Virus record (IMG/VR): IMGVR_UViG_3300034062_007046
Coordinates: 18,846-82,845 of that record
DNA length: 64,000 bases
Reading direction: 5' to 3' (one strand)
Source: a virus
The notes below the pieces were generated by a model. That model searched no databases. It worked only from the letters and a program-made list of their open reading frames with translations, and was not told the origin of the DNA. Both the position numbers and the translations under genes were made by a program. Shown here piece by piece: positions 49,320 to 64,000 of this stretch (its first letter is position 1; every line of letters starts with the position of its first letter).

Positions 49320-50591
49320 ATGTTAAGATATGGAGTTCCACCATTGCCAGCGGGCATACCTAATACTGCTTCGCTGCTTATCAATGATGGTATCGGTGGA
49401 GGCTGGGTAAGTTCTGCATTAGTAGACAATGTATTAAGCGCTTCATATGTTCCTGCAATTGTTACAACAGACGGTATACAGGGAAATGGAACGGTTGGTA
49501 GCCCTGTACAGCTACAACCAAGCATTTCTATTACGGCAGTAACGGCTTCGCTAAAAGGCGATGGTTCACAAGTTACAGGGGTTATTTCTTCTTCTTTTGC
49601 TACAACGGCGGCATTTGCTCAATCGATTAATAGTTCTTCTCTTGCAACTACTGGCTCAAATATTTTTGTTGGCAATCAAACATTCTCCGGCTCCCTTTAT
49701 CAGTCAGGAACTTTTTATGGCGACCTTATTAATTTAGCATTTGGGTCAACCCAAACTGGAACAGGCTCTTATCTTCTAAACGCGGACGATCAGGGTACAA
49801 TACAATTTGATACTTATCAAAACATAGGAGCTGCGCTACAACCATATGTAAACACTGGCTCTTTTAGTGGTTCATTTATTGGTACGGTGAGCGCATCAAC
49901 TATTACTGCAACTAAAATAACCGCTTCGTCAGGCATAAACTTAACAAATACACAAATAGAAGCAGTAAATTATATTGATTTTTATACAGGATCTTCACCA
50001 GCGTGGCGTAATGGTAGAATATTTTGGGATGATGCGCAAGGCGCTTTAGCTGTATATAATGCTGAAGCTGATATCACGCTACAAGTTGGACAAGAAAACT
50101 ACGTAAGAGCGCGTAACCAAACAGGAAGTCCAATACTAAATGGTACAGCCGTTAGATTGTCTGGTGCCCTTGGGGATAGACCAACCATAACAAAAGCACA
50201 ATCTATTGATCAAACTGCGCTTTTATCAAATCGAAACGATATCGTAGGTGTAGCAACACATGATATCGAGCATGGAACAGATGGCTATGTTACTACACAA
50301 GGTCTGGTTAATGGTTTAAATACAGATGCCTACGAGGCTGGTGATTTGCTATGGGTATCACAAACAGCAGGAGAATTAACCAATCAAGTACCGGATGCTC
50401 CCTATGACAAAATATTTATTGGTGTTGAACAAGAAAAAATACAAATAATGGTTCTATTTTTGTTTTTCCAAGACAATCTATGCACTTTCATGATTTGTCT
50501 TCTGTTAGTTCGTCGTTGTATACACAGGGCGATATATTCGTATACCAAGTTTCTGGTTCAAGCGGAGTTTGGACGAATACAAAACAATTAA
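49320..50591 (+). CDS. Head-region fibre protein, N-terminal part (frame broken near 50440)
   Basis: 423 residues as read, but only about the first 375 are natural. The body is Ser/Thr-rich (YVPAIVTTDGIQGNG, then SFSGSFIGTVSASTITATKI), followed by a domain common in phage fibres (GRIFWDDAQGALAVYNAEAD, ITLQVGQENYVRARNQTG, VGVATHDIE, GYVTTQGLVNGLNT, AGDLLWVSQTAGELT). After YDKIFIGVEQEKIQ the reading turns into an unlikely Phe/Leu/Cys/Arg-rich tail. The other frame continues the expected sequence (NNGSIFVFPRQSMHFHDLSS) into the 50480 part. The break lies at or near the A6 run at ~50434-50441. One ~709-residue fibre was probably intended. Confidence 0.6.
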   Translation: MLRYGVPPLPAGIPNTASLLINDGIGGGWVSSALVDNVLSASYVPAIVTTDGIQGNGTVGSPVQLQPSISITAVTASLKGDGSQVTGVISSSFATTAAFAQSINSSSLATTGSNIFVGNQTFSGSLYQSGTFYGDLINLAFGSTQTGTGSYLLNADDQGTIQFDTYQNIGAALQPYVNTGSFSGSFIGTVSASTITATKITASSGINLTNTQIEAVNYIDFYTGSSPAWRNGRIFWDDAQGALAVYNAEADITLQVGQENYVRARNQTGSPILNGTAVRLSGALGDRPTITKAQSIDQTALLSNRNDIVGVATHDIEHGTDGYVTTQGLVNGLNTDAYEAGDLLWVSQTAGELTNQVPDAPYDKIFIGVEQEKIQIMVLFLFFQDNLCTFMICLLLVRRCIHRAIYSYTKFLVQAEFGRIQNN

Positions 50592-51448
50592 GTGGTTCTT
50601 ATAGTTTTACTGGTTCATTGAATATAACTGGAGCATTGTCTGGCTCACCAAATATAACAGTAGCGAGCAACATAGTTCCTGTTTCGTCTGGAACAATTTC
50701 TCTTGGATCTTTAGATAAACCATTTAAAGAGATATTTGTTGGTAGTGGTTCCATCAGTATTGCAAGCCCAATTTCTGGCGACCCAGCAACCGTTATTAGC
50801 AACAACGCAGGCAACTTGGAAATAAGTGCCGGTGGTATTAGATTATTGGGAACGGGCTCATTTATTGCAGCAACTGGTTCATTTGAGTATGTGTCTGGTA
50901 ATGTTACTTGGGAAGGTAACAGTAACCAATTGGGCTATATTTCAGCTTCAAATGGCTTTACGGGATCATTTACTGGTAGTTTCTACGGGAATGATAACCT
51001 TACAAAATATTATGGTGTATTTAGTGACGAGACTTTACAAACAGCTTCTGCGATAAACACAGAAGCCGCAATACGATTTGGTAATACCCACGAAGCAAAT
51101 GGAATTAGCATAGTAAGCGGTAGCCAAATTAAAGTAACAAAAGCTGGGGTATACGATATCGCATATACAGCTCAATATCACAAAACAACTAATCCTTCTG
51201 TGACAGTATCAAACTGGTTAAAAAGAACTGGATCAAACGTTGATAAAACAAACGTTGATTTTATAATGCCTAACAACACAAACTATCATACGTTTGTAAA
51301 TTTCTATACATTATATTTAAACGCAAATGAATATGTTGAAATTATGTATAGTGATGGGGCAACATTTCAATTGTCTGGCACTGGCGCACAAATTACTCCA
51401 ACAAGACCTTCAACACCAAGCGTAAGATTAAAAATAACTAAATTATAA
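50480..51448 (+). CDS. Head-region fibre protein, C-terminal part
   Basis: 322 residues from an ATG without Shine-Dalgarno. Coding sense extends upstream to ~50440 in this frame, so the ATG is probably internal to a larger gene. Repeats of SGSYSFTGSLNITGALSGS type and TGSFTGSFYGN lead to a C-terminal C1q/TNF-like jelly-roll-type domain (YGVFSDETLQTAS, SGSQIKVTKAGVYDIAYTAQ, VSNWLKRTGSNVDKTNVDF, SVRLKITKL). Such domains are trimeric fibre tips. It is the natural continuation of the 49320 gene by a -1 (or +2) change of frame. Confidence 0.6.
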   Translation: MHFHDLSSVSSSLYTQGDIFVYQVSGSSGVWTNTKQLSGSYSFTGSLNITGALSGSPNITVASNIVPVSSGTISLGSLDKPFKEIFVGSGSISIASPISGDPATVISNNAGNLEISAGGIRLLGTGSFIAATGSFEYVSGNVTWEGNSNQLGYISASNGFTGSFTGSFYGNDNLTKYYGVFSDETLQTASAINTEAAIRFGNTHEANGISIVSGSQIKVTKAGVYDIAYTAQYHKTTNPSVTVSNWLKRTGSNVDKTNVDFIMPNNTNYHTFVNFYTLYLNANEYVEIMYSDGATFQLSGTGAQITPTRPSTPSVRLKITKL

Positions 51449-58495: not shown

Positions 58496-61279
58496 ATGCC
58501 AATTGAAAAGTTTAAGTTTGTAAGTCCCGGTGTTCAAGCGCAGGAAGTCGATCAATCACAAATCCCAAGAACACCAGAAGATATGGGACCAGTTATTATT
58601 GGACGTTCCTTGCGCGGTCCTGTTATGCGTCCAGTGAAAGTTGGTTCTTTTTCAGATTTCGTAGATGTATTCGGTGAACCAGTTCCAGGTGGTATTGGTG
58701 GTGACGTTTGGAGAAACGGTAATAAAACTGCTCCAACTTATGCTGCTTACGCCGCTCAAGCTTATTTACGCAATTCATCACCAGTTACTTTCGTTCGTTT
58801 AGCTGGTTATGAAAATCCAGATGAAACTACAGGTGAAGCAGGTTGGGCAGTAACAAACGCTTACGGCTTATTTATTGCGCCAATTGGCGGTTCTGGCGAC
58901 ATATGGTCGATACCAGCTGCTACAGCTTCACTTGGTGCAATTATTTATGCTGGCGCTGGAACTTTTGGTTTAACTGGTAAGCCATTAAGTGGTTCAACAG
59001 AAAGCATTGTTTCTCAAACAGGTAATTGGGTTCGCGTAACTGGAACTAATGGCGAAGTCAAACTAACAGTCTCAGGTTCAACAAAAAGCGTAAATTTTGA
59101 TGAAAATTCTAAAAAATACATCCGTTCAGTATTAAACACAAACCCAGTTCTAACAAATACCGATATCACAAGTGCGCCTGAATCTTATTTCCTTGGTGAA
59201 ACGTTTAAAACTTGGGTATTAGAGAAGCATCCAACATTATCAGGTTCATCTAATTTTGCGGCAATTCTTGTTAGATTAGATAACGGTACAGCAGATTTTG
59301 CAAACCACCAAGTTCAAGCAGAAGATGCCGCAACAGGATGGGTTGTTTCACAACACAAGGGTTTAGCAACTGATTTCGTTGCCAATGGTGCAACTGGTGA
59401 ATATCCAGTACAAAAACTCTTTAAGCTCGTCGGCTTAACTGAAGGTGAATGGAATAGCCAAAATCTTAAAGTAGCTATTGAAGATATTAAAGAGCCACCA
59501 AATGAATTTGTTAAATTTGGTTCATTTACAGTTTCAATCCGTAAAATGGATGATAGCGATTTAGTTCCACAATATGTTGAAAGATTCTCAAACCTTTCAT
59601 TAGACCCCTCATCAGAAAATTATATCGCAAAGAAAATTGGCGATAAGTACACAGAATGGGATTATGAAAAGAAGGCATTTGTTGAATATGGTACATATGA
59701 CAACAAGTCAAAATTTATCCGTGTAGAAATGAATCCAGACGTTGATGCAGCGCTAACAGATCCAGATTTAATTCCATTCGGTTTCTACGGTCCAGCGCAA
59801 TTAGCAGATGTAGCAGTATCAAGCTCAAGCGGTTCAGTAGCAGGAGCTGGCTTTTTCTTAGACACAGCGATTACTGGTAATGCTGCATATACTGCAAGCT
59901 TTGCTCTACAACAACTACCACTTCTAACAACAACAGCTGATTCACCAGCAGCTTCATTAGCTTCTGTTACATTTGGCTTCAAAACAAACGTTGATGGTAC
60001 AAAGAAGTACAATAAAGATATGCCAGACTACCTAAGAGCATATCCAAATGGTTGGACAGAAGATAAGCCTGCATTCTTGTTCTCTCTTGACGATGTTAGT
60101 GCATCGGTAAGCTCTGGATCAATCGTTCAATCAACTCCTGCAACGTGGACAGAAGGAAATAGAGCAGCAACCGGGTCATTAACTGCTTATGGTTCTCAAG
60201 GCACTCTAACATCATCAAATGGTTCAAGATTAGTTTTGGGAACATTCAACAAGTTCGTCATGCCTCTATTCGGCGGCACTGATGGCGTTGACATTACAGA
60301 AAAAGATCCATTCAATACAAGAGTATTGGGACAAACTGGTGCAAATGAATACACCAATTATGCTTACAACAGCGTTAAGGTTGCGGTTGAAAGCATCGCA
60401 GACCCAGAAGTTGTTGAAATGAATCTTGCAGCAATGCCAGGTATTGAAAATGAAGCCCTAACTGGTCTATTATTAGAGAAATGCGAAGTTCGCGGTGATG
60501 CACTTGCCGTTATCGATCTTAAGGGTGATTACGTACCAGAAGAGGGTAAGGCAACACCAAGCACATCAGCAGCAGCTCGTAAACCAGTTGTAGCAGATGC
60601 GGTATCAAATCTAAAGAACCGTGCGATTAATAGTAGCTATGGTTGTGCGTTCTTCCCTTGGGTATTAATCCGCGATAACTTAAACAACAATACCGTATGG
60701 GTACCACCATCAGTTGCAGCCCTTGGTACTTTCTCAAGTTCACAACGTAAGACAGAATTATGGTTTGCACCAGCAGGATTTAATCGTGGTGGTTTAACAG
60801 AAGGCGCAGCTGGTTTACCAGTTCTACAAACTTCACTTAAGCTATCATCAAAAGATCGTGATGCGCTTTACGAGGCAAATATCAATCCAATCGCTTCATT
60901 CCCAAGCGAAGGAATTGTAATCTTTGGTCAAAAGACACTACAAGTAACACCAAGCGCATTAGATCGCATCAATGTTCGCCGTTTGATGATTTACTTGAAG
61001 AAAGAAATCAGCCGCTTTGCAACAACGGTTCTATTTGATCCAAACATCGAAGTAACTTGGAAGCGTTTCACAAATCAAGCTATTCCTTTCCTTGAAAGCG
61101 TCAAATCAAGATTTGGTGTTAGTGAATTCCGTGTTGTGTTAGACGAGACAACTACAACACCAGAATTAGTAGATCGTAACATTGTTTATGCCAAGATCCT
61201 CTTGAAGCCAACACGCGCTATCGAATTTATCGCACTTGACTTCGTAATTACAAATACTGGTGCATCATTTAACGATTAA
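58496..61279 (+). CDS. Tail sheath protein, T4 gp18-like
   Basis: A 927-residue protein with an AAAGGAG site. The N-terminus (FKFVSPGVQAQEVDQSQIPR, then GPVIIGRSLRGPVMRPVKVG and DFVDVFGEP) is diagnostic of contractile sheaths. The C-terminus (INVRRLMIYLKKEISRFAT, NPIASFPSEGIVIFGQKTL, FRVVLDETTTTPELVDRNIV) is the conserved core that polymerises around the tube. It is about 270 residues longer than T4 gp18 (659), with the extra sequence in the Ser/Ala-rich middle, likely outward-facing domains. Arginine CGT/CGC use is partial. It is followed by a hairpin. Confidence 0.92.
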   Translation: MPIEKFKFVSPGVQAQEVDQSQIPRTPEDMGPVIIGRSLRGPVMRPVKVGSFSDFVDVFGEPVPGGIGGDVWRNGNKTAPTYAAYAAQAYLRNSSPVTFVRLAGYENPDETTGEAGWAVTNAYGLFIAPIGGSGDIWSIPAATASLGAIIYAGAGTFGLTGKPLSGSTESIVSQTGNWVRVTGTNGEVKLTVSGSTKSVNFDENSKKYIRSVLNTNPVLTNTDITSAPESYFLGETFKTWVLEKHPTLSGSSNFAAILVRLDNGTADFANHQVQAEDAATGWVVSQHKGLATDFVANGATGEYPVQKLFKLVGLTEGEWNSQNLKVAIEDIKEPPNEFVKFGSFTVSIRKMDDSDLVPQYVERFSNLSLDPSSENYIAKKIGDKYTEWDYEKKAFVEYGTYDNKSKFIRVEMNPDVDAALTDPDLIPFGFYGPAQLADVAVSSSSGSVAGAGFFLDTAITGNAAYTASFALQQLPLLTTTADSPAASLASVTFGFKTNVDGTKKYNKDMPDYLRAYPNGWTEDKPAFLFSLDDVSASVSSGSIVQSTPATWTEGNRAATGSLTAYGSQGTLTSSNGSRLVLGTFNKFVMPLFGGTDGVDITEKDPFNTRVLGQTGANEYTNYAYNSVKVAVESIADPEVVEMNLAAMPGIENEALTGLLLEKCEVRGDALAVIDLKGDYVPEEGKATPSTSAAARKPVVADAVSNLKNRAINSSYGCAFFPWVLIRDNLNNNTVWVPPSVAALGTFSSSQRKTELWFAPAGFNRGGLTEGAAGLPVLQTSLKLSSKDRDALYEANINPIASFPSEGIVIFGQKTLQVTPSALDRINVRRLMIYLKKEISRFATTVLFDPNIEVTWKRFTNQAIPFLESVKSRFGVSEFRVVLDETTTTPELVDRNIVYAKILLKPTRAIEFIALDFVITNTGASFND

Positions 61280-61342: not shown

Positions 61343-61936
61343 ATGGCATTTTGGAGTCAGGCTACAACTGAGCCTTTAAGACAATTTAGATGGACTGTTA
61401 TTTTTGGAGCCAATGAAGGCGCAGCCACTTTAGATAGTCAAATATATGCACTTAAAAAAGTAGATAGACCTAAAGCAACAATCAGCGAAGTTACTCATAA
61501 ATACTTAAATCATGAATTTTATTATCCTGGTAGATTAAAGTGGGAACCTATTAATATGACAATCGCTGCTATTAGAGAAGGCGATGGCGATCTTTCAGGC
61601 GGTCCCGGAACTTCAACGGCTCTAATGACTACCTTAGTAAGTGCTGGATACATGATCCCTACTTCAATACAGCCAGAACAGAGAAAAACCTTGGCAAAAC
61701 AAAAATTTGCCAATGGTCTTGGCAGTTCAATTTTTATACAAAATTTAGATCCAGACGGAGTAGTTATAGAGCAATGGAAAATTTTAAATCCATTTTTTAC
61801 ATCCGTGCAGTTTGGATCTCTTGATTATGGTAGCGATGAAATAGTAGAAGTACAATGTACTTTGAAATATGACGCGGCATATCATACAGTAGGCGCTGGA
61901 GACGCTGCACCAGCTGGTGCAAATCCATTCGTATAA
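61343..61936 (+). CDS. Tail tube protein, T4 gp19-like (copy 1)
   Basis: A 197-residue protein with a TAGGAGA site. It starts MAFWSQATTEPLRQFRWTV and has KKVDRPKATISEVTHKYLNH, FYYPGRLKWEPINMTI, WKILNPFFTSVQFGSLDYGS and VQCTLKYDAAYH, the pattern of gp19-type tube subunits. Length is near T4 gp19 (163) plus a short C-terminal arm. It has its own Shine-Dalgarno just after the sheath hairpin, so it is probably the main inner tube protein. Confidence 0.85.
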   Translation: MAFWSQATTEPLRQFRWTVIFGANEGAATLDSQIYALKKVDRPKATISEVTHKYLNHEFYYPGRLKWEPINMTIAAIREGDGDLSGGPGTSTALMTTLVSAGYMIPTSIQPEQRKTLAKQKFANGLGSSIFIQNLDPDGVVIEQWKILNPFFTSVQFGSLDYGSDEIVEVQCTLKYDAAYHTVGAGDAAPAGANPFV

Positions 61937-61949
61937 TAAATAAATTATT

Positions 61950-62465
61950 ATGGCTTTTTGGGGCAAACAAGATTTAAAAGAACCATTACGCCAAAATAGG
62001 TGGTATTTAAGATATAATGTAGATGGCTTGGATGCTTATACATTTGCTTTAAAAGAGTGCAAAAAACCAGAATATGAAATTGGGGTAACAGAACACCGTT
62101 TGCTAACACACACTGTTCGTTACCCTACTCTTTTAAAGTGGCTACCAATCGATATAAAAATGATATCTGTTCGTGGAACCGACGATGTTTCAAGTTTAAA
62201 TGGCGCTATAGAATCTTTTATATCTGATATTGGATACTCAAACCCAGTTACAAATGAACATCAGCAGATAAGCAAGCAATCATTGACTTTAGATATATAT
62301 CAAGTTGATGAAAACGGTAATAAAATCGAAGAATGGAATTTATATAATCCTTTAATTACCAAAGTTAACTATGGTACACTATCATATGAAAATGAAGGTT
62401 TAATGGAAGTTTCTTTAAGCATAACATATGATTTTGCTAATCATACTATATTAATCCCTAAATAA
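61950..62465 (+). CDS. Tail tube-type protein (copy 2)
   Basis: A 171-residue paralogue of the preceding gene: MAFWGKQDLKEPLRQNRWYL, VRYPTLLKWLPIDIKMISVR, WNLYNPLITKVNYGTLSYEN and VSLSITYDFANH line up with copy 1. The 13 bases before its ATG are all A and T, without a Shine-Dalgarno, so it may be translated at a lower level by coupling. In T4 the tube-fold proteins gp48 and gp54 start the tube on the baseplate; this copy could play such a part, or be a minor tube ring. Confidence 0.75.
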   Translation: MAFWGKQDLKEPLRQNRWYLRYNVDGLDAYTFALKECKKPEYEIGVTEHRLLTHTVRYPTLLKWLPIDIKMISVRGTDDVSSLNGAIESFISDIGYSNPVTNEHQQISKQSLTLDIYQVDENGNKIEEWNLYNPLITKVNYGTLSYENEGLMEVSLSITYDFANHTILIPK

Positions 62466-62483: not shown

Positions 62484-63329
62484 ATGAGAAATAATGAAGA
62501 ACGTTTTGGTGTTCCCACGCAATTACAAGATGGAACTCCACCACAAGTATTGCAGCAAGCACAAGGTCTATCATTAGACTTTATAACACCAACAGAAATT
62601 GTTCCACTCCCATCAAAAGGCAAGTTTTATCCTGTCGGTCATCCGTTGAGAGGCAAAGACTCAATTGAAATCAAGCAAATGACGGCTAAAGAAGAGGATA
62701 TCTTGACGAACAAGAGTCTTCTTAAAAAGGGAATTGCTCTTGACAAGCTAATTCAATCTTTGATTGTAGACAGAACCATCAATCCTGATACTCTAACGGT
62801 CGATGATCGTAATGCCATCATTATTGCAGCGAGAATTGCTGCATATGGTGCAGAATATTCGACACAAGTAACTTGCCCGTCATGCTCACAAAAGAGCAAA
62901 TATTCATTTAATCTAATAGAAAAACTTCCAAAAGAAGATGAAGGTACATCAGAAACAGCAGTCGATGATAATGGGTTTTTTGTCATTAGTCTACCAGCTA
63001 CTAAATGGACGGTAGTCTGTAGAGCACTAAATGGAAATGATGAAAAGAATCTTCTAAAGACTTCAGAGCTAAAAAAGAAATCTTCCAATGATTCAATCTT
63101 CTTAGATCAATTGAAGTCTATGGTTGTTGCTATTCAAAACGTAACTGATCGTCCAACATTGGAAAAAGCATTAGCTGCTATGCCAGCTGGTGATACTCGC
63201 CATCTCCGCAGAGAATATCAAAAAGCTGTGGAATCTGTTGATATGAGACAAACATTTCTTTGCTCACACTGCGAAGAGGAAACCGTGATGGAGGTTCCGC
63301 TTTCAGCAGACTTTTTTTGGTTTAAGTGA
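62484..63329 (+). CDS. T4 gp26-type baseplate protein / tail assembly chaperone, 0-frame product
   Basis: A 281-residue protein. PLPSKGKFYP (41-50), KQMTAKEEDILTNKSLLKKG and VDDRNAIIIAARIAAYG match the T4 base plate protein family (PF12322, gp26). Cysteines occur as CPSC (131-134) and CSHC (260-263), probably one zinc site. It ends DFFWFK at a TGA just after a run of seven Ts (63312-63318). A +1 or -2 change of frame there runs on for 60 further codons (63319-63501). It lies directly before the tape-measure gene, where phages usually encode frameshifted tail assembly chaperones. Confidence 0.75.
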   Translation: MRNNEERFGVPTQLQDGTPPQVLQQAQGLSLDFITPTEIVPLPSKGKFYPVGHPLRGKDSIEIKQMTAKEEDILTNKSLLKKGIALDKLIQSLIVDRTINPDTLTVDDRNAIIIAARIAAYGAEYSTQVTCPSCSQKSKYSFNLIEKLPKEDEGTSETAVDDNGFFVISLPATKWTVVCRALNGNDEKNLLKTSELKKKSSNDSIFLDQLKSMVVAIQNVTDRPTLEKALAAMPAGDTRHLRREYQKAVESVDMRQTFLCSHCEEETVMEVPLSADFFWFK

Positions 63330-63501
63330 TCAATATCAACAAAACATCTATGAGCAGTTCTTCTATTTAAAGTATTATGGAGGATTCTCACTGTTTGAAA
63401 GTTATAACCTTCCAGTTGCTCTCCGAAAATGGTTTGTTGAAAAACTTGTAGAACAACTAAAAGAAGAAAGTGATCAAATAAAGAAAGCTTCAAGGAAATA
63501 A
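63319..63501 (+). CDS. Frameshift extension of the gp26-type gene (tail chaperone T-like part)
   Basis: This 60-codon frame begins at the T7 run and has no ATG, GTG or TTG before its core. It reads GLSDQYQQNIYEQFFYLKYY, then GGFSLFESYNLPVALRKWFV and a charged helix. The F-Y-x-x-x-x-GGFS-x-x-E-x-Y-(N)-(L/M)-P pattern is what I recall for the small gene after gp26 in other T4-like phages. As it cannot start alone, it is either made as a C-terminal extension by ribosomal frameshifting on GAC-TTT-TTT-T, or belongs to a single gene split by a one-T read error (six Ts would fuse the frames). Confidence 0.65.
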   Translation, partial: GLSDQYQQNIYEQFFYLKYYGGFSLFESYNLPVALRKWFVEKLVEQLKEESDQIKKASRK

Positions 63502-63531
63502 AAGAGGGCGGGGTAAAACCCGCTCTTTTTT
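63501..63531 (+). terminator. Probable terminator before the tape measure
   Basis: AAAAGAG-GG-CGGG (63500-63511) pairs with CCCG-CTCTTTT with a two-base bulge, and ends in TTTTTT. It lies right after the chaperone extension. Confidence 0.7.
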
Positions 63532-63582: not shown

Positions 63583-64000
63583 ATGGCTATTGATGATGTC
63601 ACTAAAAGTTTAGAAGCTATAAAAGCGCAAAAAGAAGCGACCGAAGCTACAACTAACGCTTCTAACGAGCAATTAAAAGTTCTTAAAGAAATAGCAGACC
63701 TACAGAAACAAATTTTAGACATCAATGCAAAAAAGAAAGAGCAAGAAGAAAAAACTCTTAAAGATATACAAAGCGCTAATGTCTCTTTAGAACAACAGTA
63801 CAAAGCAGCACAAAAAAATTCTAAAGAAAAAGCAGAGGCGGCAAAAGAATACTTAGATGGCTTGGAAGAAGAACTTAGAAACGGTAAAAAAAATAAACAA
63901 TTAACTGAAGAACAAATAAACTTTATTAGAGAAAAAATTAAAGAATTAAAAAAAGAAAATAAAGAATTAGACGAATTCTTAGTAAAAGAAGAAAAAAGAA
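63583..64000 (+). CDS. Tape-measure-like protein, N-terminal part (3' truncated)
   Basis: Open from the ATG at 63583 to the window edge (139 residues seen). An earlier ATG at 63568 stops after 4 codons. The visible part is nearly pure coiled coil, rich in Lys, Glu and Ala (EATTNASNEQLKVLKEIADL, KEELRNGKKNKQLTEEQINF). The position directly after the gp26/chaperone pair and the coiled-coil start suggest the tail length tape measure, which fills the tube and sets tail length. The truncated state prevents a firm call. Confidence 0.55.
   Translation, partial: MAIDDVTKSLEAIKAQKEATEATTNASNEQLKVLKEIADLQKQILDINAKKKEQEEKTLKDIQSANVSLEQQYKAAQKNSKEKAEAAKEYLDGLEEELRNGKKNKQLTEEQINFIREKIKELKKENKELDEFLVKEEKR

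What the first reader, a model, noticed from the sequence alone, without database searches (positions are those of the whole stretch)
63309..63501. Frameshift at a seven-T run joins the gp26-type gene to a tail-chaperone extension
The 0-frame gene ends DFFWFK-stop just after GAC TTT TTT T. The +1/-2 frame runs 60 codons with a protein-like sequence (YEQFFYLKYYGGFS, YNLPVALRKWFVEKL) and no usable start codon. Frameshifted tail assembly chaperones (lambda G/GT, Mu-type) sit directly before the tape measure, as here. It would place a T4-type gp26 gene in the G/GT logic, with a poly-T slip site unlike the lambda one.
Basis: partly seen in the sequence, partly recalled or inferred. Interest (0 to 1): 0.75.

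Follow-up and report, generated by a model that had tools for sequence, protein, structure and literature searches.

The report
Frameshift-made tail chaperone in T4-type phages
In a large group of uncultured T4-related phages, the gp26 tail-assembly gene appears to make a second, longer protein when ribosomes skip one base at a conserved run of U's, a trick known from other phages that T4 itself replaced with two separate genes.

Summary
At 63312-63320 (TTT TTT TGG) the gp26 gene (62484-63329, PF12322) overlaps a +1-frame extension (63319-63501, 60 codons) that has no ATG, GTG or TTG. It is not a sequencing error: 207 of 208 distinct related loci carry the extension in the same +1 frame, always with a zero-frame UUU followed by U or C in the overlap. 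The extension evolves as protein in the +1 frame and is often more conserved than gp26 itself.

The T run as such is not the signal (TTC TTT TGG, TTT CTT TGG, TTT CTA TGG and TTC TTT CGT also occur). This favours +1 slippage of tRNA-Phe over -2 or transcriptional slippage. Tail tube, chaperone, extension and tape measure lie in the lambda G/GT order.

The extension is homologous to the small "gp51" of cyanophages, where it lies in the -1 frame at canonical U UUU UUC (62 of 62 loci). T4 gp51 matches that whole fusion, T4 gp26 only the short form. Vladimirov et al. 2022 already identified T4-like tail chaperones (paper not readable here).

The +1 UUU-Y variant, and the three alternative solutions within one gene family, are the newer part. 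No peptide evidence exists.

The parts
58496..61279 (+). tail sheath protein (gp18-type, 927 aa)
   Evidence: Pfam PF17482 E 3e-11
61343..61936 (+). tail tube protein 1 (gp19-type)
   Evidence: phrog_4542 E 6.5e-23
61950..62465 (+). tail tube protein 2 (gp19-type)
   Evidence: phrog_4542 E 4e-15
62484..63329 (+). zero-frame gp26-type gene: short chaperone form (TAC-N), 281 aa, stop TGA at 63327-63329
   Evidence: PF12322 T4_baseplate E 4.9e-15; phrog_150
63290..63295 (+). GGAGGT, Shine-Dalgarno-like, 16 nt upstream of the first TTT; candidate stimulator
   Evidence: 37 of 41 cluster representatives keep GGAGGT; stronger anti-SD pairing than synonymous shuffles
63312..63320 (+). shift site TTT TTT TGG (UUU_U): +1 slip of P-site tRNA-Phe
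   Evidence: zero-frame UUU followed by U or C in the overlap of all 207 +1-frame loci
63319..63501 (+). +1-frame extension (TAC-C, gp51-type C-terminal domain), 60 codons, no start codon
   Evidence: conserved +1 frame and codon-phase pattern; no ATG, GTG or TTG in the frame
63500..63531 (+). intrinsic-terminator-like hairpin directly after the extension's stop
   Evidence: 13-pair stem followed by T-rich tail
63583..64000 (+). start of the tape measure gene, cut by the end of the contig
   Evidence: the same gene complete in L087 (896 aa) hits phrog_167 tape measure E 5e-10

Best explanation
The gp26-type gene encodes a tail assembly chaperone made in two forms. Most ribosomes stop at 63327 and make the short form (281 aa). 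At UUU_UUU_UGG some ribosomes let the P-site tRNA-Phe slip forward one base (UUU to UUU, or UUC in relatives) while the A-site codon waits, and go on in the +1 frame to make a 338-aa fusion whose C-terminal domain corresponds to gp51. As in lambda G/GT, the short form would coat the tape measure protein and the long form would recruit tail tube subunits. Shown by sequence: the split frames, their conservation, the invariant UUU-Y, the absence of a start codon in the window, the gene order and the homology to cyanophage gp51. Inferred: that ribosomes actually shift, the ratio of the forms, and the binding roles of the two domains.
For: 207 of 208 distinct loci (120 clusters at <80% identity of the extension) have the +1 frame and a UUU-Y. 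The codon-phase pattern switches from zero frame to +1 frame at the slip. 23 of 78 window-type loci have a +1-frame stop within 15 nt upstream of the slip, so the transition is confined to about 30 nt. 17 of 78, the window included, have no start codon in the extension frame from its opening to +60. Short-T variants exclude slippage on a long T run. In TTC TTT TGG loci a -2 shift would put tRNA-Phe on UCU, a mismatch. The extension is homologous to cyanophage gp51, and T4 gp51 aligns with the S-PM2 short-plus-extension fusion over 228 columns (98% probability, E 2e-13), T4 gp26 with the short part only. The tape measure follows. AlphaFold2 folds the fusion with confidence: mean pLDDT 89.9, extension blocks mostly above 90 (three junction residues differ from the true product).
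Against: No proteomic or reporter evidence. No conserved RNA structure near the slip in a 24-sequence alignment. The Shine-Dalgarno-like element lies 16-19 nt upstream, unlike the short spacing in prfB. 34 of 78 window-type loci have an ATG 18 nt into the extension that could in principle start a short separate protein, though weakly placed for a ribosome (mean anti-SD energy -1.7 against -4.3 kcal/mol at the gp26 ATG). The Foldseek match to the solved HK97 chaperone 2OB9 is not significant (E 2.9).
Confidence: 0.87

Rival explanations
1. Termination-reinitiation or independent initiation: the extension is made as a separate small gp51-type protein starting at a non-standard or internal codon.
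For: LR756511 (L006) has a TAATG stop-start overlap for its extension. S-PM2 is annotated with gp51 starting just after the gp26 stop. 34 of 78 window-type loci have an ATG at +18.
Against: The window's extension has no ATG, GTG or TTG at all, nor do 17 of 78 window-type loci from the frame opening to +60. The +1 frame is conserved from the first codon after the slip, GGN with all four third bases, ahead of the +18 ATG. An invariant UUU-Y would have no purpose.
Confidence: 0.07
2. A -2 frameshift at the same place, as in phage Mu, which gives the same reading frame.
For: Same reading frame; at UUU_UUU a -2 re-pairing of tRNA-Phe is possible; Mu gpGT is described as the only known natural -2 case (PMC3498833).
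Against: In TTC TTT TGG loci a -2 shift puts tRNA-Phe on UCU, and TTT CTA TGG offers no good -2 pairing either; one +1 rule (UUU followed by U or C) covers all 207 loci.
Confidence: 0.03
3. Transcriptional slippage on the T run, so that a fraction of mRNAs carry the other frame.
For: T7 in the window and T7 in most relatives.
Against: Variants with at most four T in a row (TTC TTT TGG, TTT CTT TGG, TTT CTA TGG, TTC TTT CGT) keep the same frames. Eighteen other T7 runs lie in the window.
Confidence: 0.02
4. Sequencing or assembly error: one continuous gene with a different number of T's.
For: Homopolymer, single metagenome contig.
Against: The same frames occur in 207 loci, including the isolates Microcystis phage Mel-JY01 and Flavobacterium phage immuto. 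None of 270 distinct loci has short form and extension in one continuous frame.
Confidence: 0.01

Closest known systems
Lambda G/GT tail assembly chaperones (PMC5009743; Xu et al. 2004, 2013 cited therein)
   Same: Short form and frameshift-extended long form, directly before the tape measure gene and after the major tail protein; two-domain product.
   Different: Lambda shifts -1; here +1 at UUU_Y. No sequence relation detected.
T4 gp26/gp51 and the T4-like tail assembly chaperones of Vladimirov, Gautam and Davidson 2022 (Virology 566:9, not readable here; described in PMC10885494 and PMC12846349)
   Same: Same protein family (PF12322). T4 gp26 corresponds to the short form and T4 gp51 to the long fusion.
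   Different: T4 uses two separate genes (one short, one fused); here both forms would come from one gene by frameshift.
Cyanophage/pelagiphage (Kyanoviridae) gp26 and 'gp51'
   Same: gp26 followed by a homologous extension in another frame.
   Different: There the extension is in the -1 frame at canonical U_UUU_UUC (62 of 62 loci; U_UUU_UUU in HTVC008M).
Influenza A PA-X +1 frameshift at UCC_UUU_CGU (PMC3498833)
   Same: +1 slip of P-site tRNA-Phe from UUU to UUC with a slow A-site codon; one relative here (L004) has UUC_UUU_CGU. That paper predicted a wider class of UUU_C +1 sites with restricted A- and E-site codons.
   Different: Bacterial virus, mostly UUU_U with UGG in the A site; unrelated gene.
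Bacterial prfB (RF2) +1 frameshift at CUU_UGA (own knowledge)
   Same: +1 slip onto UUU, with an upstream Shine-Dalgarno-like sequence.

Membership tests
gp26 family (PF12322) | Profile match above the curated cut-off | tested here: met
   56.3 bits against a cut-off of 24.5
Frameshifted tail assembly chaperones (G/GT type) | Lies between the tail tube gene and the tape measure gene | tested here: met
   Two gp19-type genes before; tape measure phrog_167 after, in L087
Frameshifted tail assembly chaperones (G/GT type) | Conserved overlapping second frame without its own start codon | tested here: met
   207 of 208 loci in +1; none of ATG, GTG, TTG in the window's extension; many relatives do hold possible starts
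Frameshifted tail assembly chaperones (G/GT type) | Conserved slippery site that allows tRNA re-pairing | tested here: met
   Zero-frame UUU followed by U or C in all 207
Frameshifted tail assembly chaperones (G/GT type) | Both products made in a fixed ratio and absent from the virion | not testable with these tools
   Needs infected-cell and virion proteomics
Frameshifted tail assembly chaperones (G/GT type) | Fold of the short form like solved chaperones | tested here: inconclusive
   HK97 chaperone 2OB9: Foldseek probability 0.23, target TM 0.51, but E 2.9
T4 gp51 type | Long form equals short form plus C-terminal domain, homologous along the whole length | tested here: inconclusive
   S-PM2 fusion against T4 gp51: P 98, E 2e-13 over 228 columns. 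The window-type fusion matches gp51 only partly, P 41 over 40 columns; the window-type extension matches the S-PM2 extension at P 92
Canonical X_XXY_YYZ -1 frameshift | -1 frame open and heptamer present | tested here: not met
   -1 frame closed in the window; the run is preceded by C (GAC TTT TTT TGG)

The most novel reading that the evidence does not exclude
One tail-chaperone gene family has solved 'two forms from one protein' in at least three different ways: +1 slippage of tRNA-Phe at UUU_Y (this group), -1 tandem slippage at U_UUU_UUC (cyanophages and pelagiphages), and gene duplication (T4). A fourth, translational coupling at TAATG, occurs in one jumbo phage. The direction of a programmed frameshift would have switched at nearly the same codons, and the +1 sites would be a large natural class of UUU_Y +1 frameshifting in bacteria.
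Probability: 0.65. Interest if true: 0.7.

Novelty: new variant of a known kind. Interest (0 to 1): 0.6.

Why it matters
It puts a very common group of environmental T4-related phages under the same two-form chaperone rule as lambda, and gives T4's puzzling hub-assembly proteins gp26 and gp51 a simple reading as the short and long form. It offers over 200 natural variants of a +1 slip site for testing what makes UUU_Y shift. It also shows that annotation misses the long form: Mel-JY01 carries the extension as a separate gene with a TTG start, immuto as a 36-codon fragment.

Tried and rejected
Conserved downstream RNA structure: none predicted in a 24-sequence alignment. Rfam: only sub-threshold hits, mostly over the terminator hairpin. 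tRNA genes that might bear on decoding: none in the window. Extension alone against Pfam and PHROGs: no match. Window-type extension against the T4 gp51 C-terminus directly: no match; the link runs through the cyanophage extension. PDB fold search: no significant match. A code word that reads the exact fusion for the structure job: TTTT and TGGT recur in frame, so TGAT=D was used, which leaves WFK instead of GLS at the junction. Longest-open-frame sorting misfiled L400 and L371 as -1; they have the extension in +1. A tree of the whole family was not attempted because the groups share too little sequence.

Full report
What is there. The window is the last 64 kb of an 82,845-base virus record. 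At its end lie a tail sheath gene, two tandem tail tube genes, a gp26-type gene and the start of a tape measure gene. The gp26-type gene runs 62484-63329 and ends GAC TTT TTT TGG TTT AAG TGA. In the +1 frame, open from 63289, a 60-codon extension runs from 63319 to the stop at 63499-63501; it holds no ATG, GTG or TTG. A terminator-like hairpin follows at once (63500-63531). The contig ends inside the next gene, but in L087, which carries the same gp26 and extension, that gene is complete: 896 aa, matching PHROG tape measure proteins at E 5e-10.

Is it more than chance. Two scans of viral contigs with gp26 and with the extension, and three more with relatives, gave 270 distinct loci. In the three groups around the window, Mel-JY01 and Flavobacterium phage immuto, 207 of 208 loci have the extension in the +1 frame. 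(Sorting by the longest open frame alone put L400 and L371 in -1; both carry TTT TTT TGG and the extension in +1.) They form 120 clusters at below 80% identity of the extension. Across 857 pairs of window-type loci, differences after the slip fall 7842: 3300: 16683 on +1-frame codon positions 1, 2, 3, while upstream they follow the zero frame (4998: 3846: 8414). The first codon after the slip is GGN with all four third bases, so protein selection in the +1 frame starts right there. In 23 of 78 window-type loci the +1 frame opens no more than 15 nt before the slip, which confines the transition to about 30 nt. These loci are related to one another, so counts are not independent events.

The shift site. 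Every one of the 207 has a zero-frame TTT followed by T or C inside the overlap: TTT TTT TGG in 159, TTT CTT in 29, a single TTT TGG in 11 (mostly TTC TTT TGG), TTT CTA in 5, TTT TTT TAC in 2 and TTC TTT CGT in 1 (with L400 and L371 added to the first class). In window-type loci the second Phe codon is TTT in all 76 aligned, against 240 of 302 TTT elsewhere in the gene. One rule fits all variants: +1 slippage of P-site tRNA-Phe from UUU to UUU or UUC. A -2 shift fails in TTC TTT TGG and TTT CTA TGG, and slippage of RNA polymerase is not expected at runs of four T or fewer. The same tRNA-Phe slip is established for influenza PA-X at UCC_UUU_CGU, where the authors predicted a wider class of UUU_C sites with restricted A- and E-site codons (PMC3498833).

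Possible stimulator. GGAGGT at 63290-63295 is kept in 37 of 41 window-type cluster representatives, with GAG in 38 where GAA is the usual Glu codon of these genes (565 GAA to 230 GAG elsewhere). Its pairing to the anti-Shine-Dalgarno sequence is far stronger than in synonymous shuffles (-8.9 against -3.6 kcal/mol on average). Related elements lie farther upstream in the other +1 groups, and 7-11 nt upstream in the -1 group, close to the classical place for -1 stimulation. The 16-19 nt spacing here is unusual for +1, so its role is open. No conserved RNA structure was found around the slip.

Relation to gp51 and T4. S-PM2 and HTVC008M carry a homologous extension in the -1 frame, at U_UUU_UUC and U_UUU_UUU; 62 of 62 S-PM2-type viral-contig loci agree with -1 at U_UUU_UUC. 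In S-PM2 it is annotated as gp51. The +1 and -1 extensions match at 92-94% probability. T4 gp51 aligns with the S-PM2 short-plus-extension fusion over 228 columns (98%, E 2e-13), and T4 gp26 with the short part, ending at the shift point; both T4 proteins match PF12322. Thus T4 carries the two forms as separate genes. That agrees with the description of Vladimirov et al. [quoted passage not shown] PMC12846349 cites the same paper for poly-T -1 signals in T4-like chaperone genes. The paper itself could not be read, so part of this picture may already be there.

Function. Gene order and homology point to the two-form tail chaperone system of lambda G/GT, where the short form binds the tape measure and the long form brings tail subunits (PMC5009743). 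A T4 review lists gp26 and gp51 as hub assembly chaperones (PMC3004832). The predicted structure of the fusion is confident (mean pLDDT 89.9; extension three helices, blocks mostly above 90), with three junction residues differing from the true product because of the code needed to submit it. BFVD matches are mostly annotated as baseplate hub proteins or uncharacterized. The HK97 chaperone 2OB9 is among the PDB hits but not significant.

What is not shown. No protein has been seen. The ratio of the forms, the role of GGAGGT and the binding partners are inferred. Separate initiation remains possible for relatives with an ATG 18 nt into the extension (34 of 78 window-type loci), though not from a standard start codon in the window.

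Noticed in passing
L006 3730-3910 (LR756511, 595 kb phage): The counterpart of the extension has its own ATG overlapping the gp26 stop (TAATG): translational coupling instead of a frameshift.
   Followed up: partly
window 61343-62465: Two tandem, diverged tail tube genes (197 and 171 aa, both phrog_4542) 13 nt apart.
   Followed up: no
window 63290-63295 and relatives: Shine-Dalgarno-like GGAGGT kept at synonymous positions 16 nt before the slip; farther upstream in Mel- and immuto-type loci, 7-11 nt upstream in the -1 group. The spacing is unexplained for a +1 shift.
   Followed up: partly
L002 3734-3970 and L003 3833-3943: Public annotation breaks the extension: a separate gene with a TTG start in Mel-JY01 (WWT39326.1), a 36-codon fragment in immuto (QQO92150.1).
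   Followed up: yes
window 49320-50591 and 50480-51448: Two same-strand ORFs (423 and 322 aa) overlap by 112 bases; not examined.
   Followed up: no
window 58496-61279: Tail sheath of 927 aa; the listed hits in other T4-like phages cover only about its last 300 residues, so the rest looks specific to this group, Mel-JY01 and LR756508.
   Followed up: no
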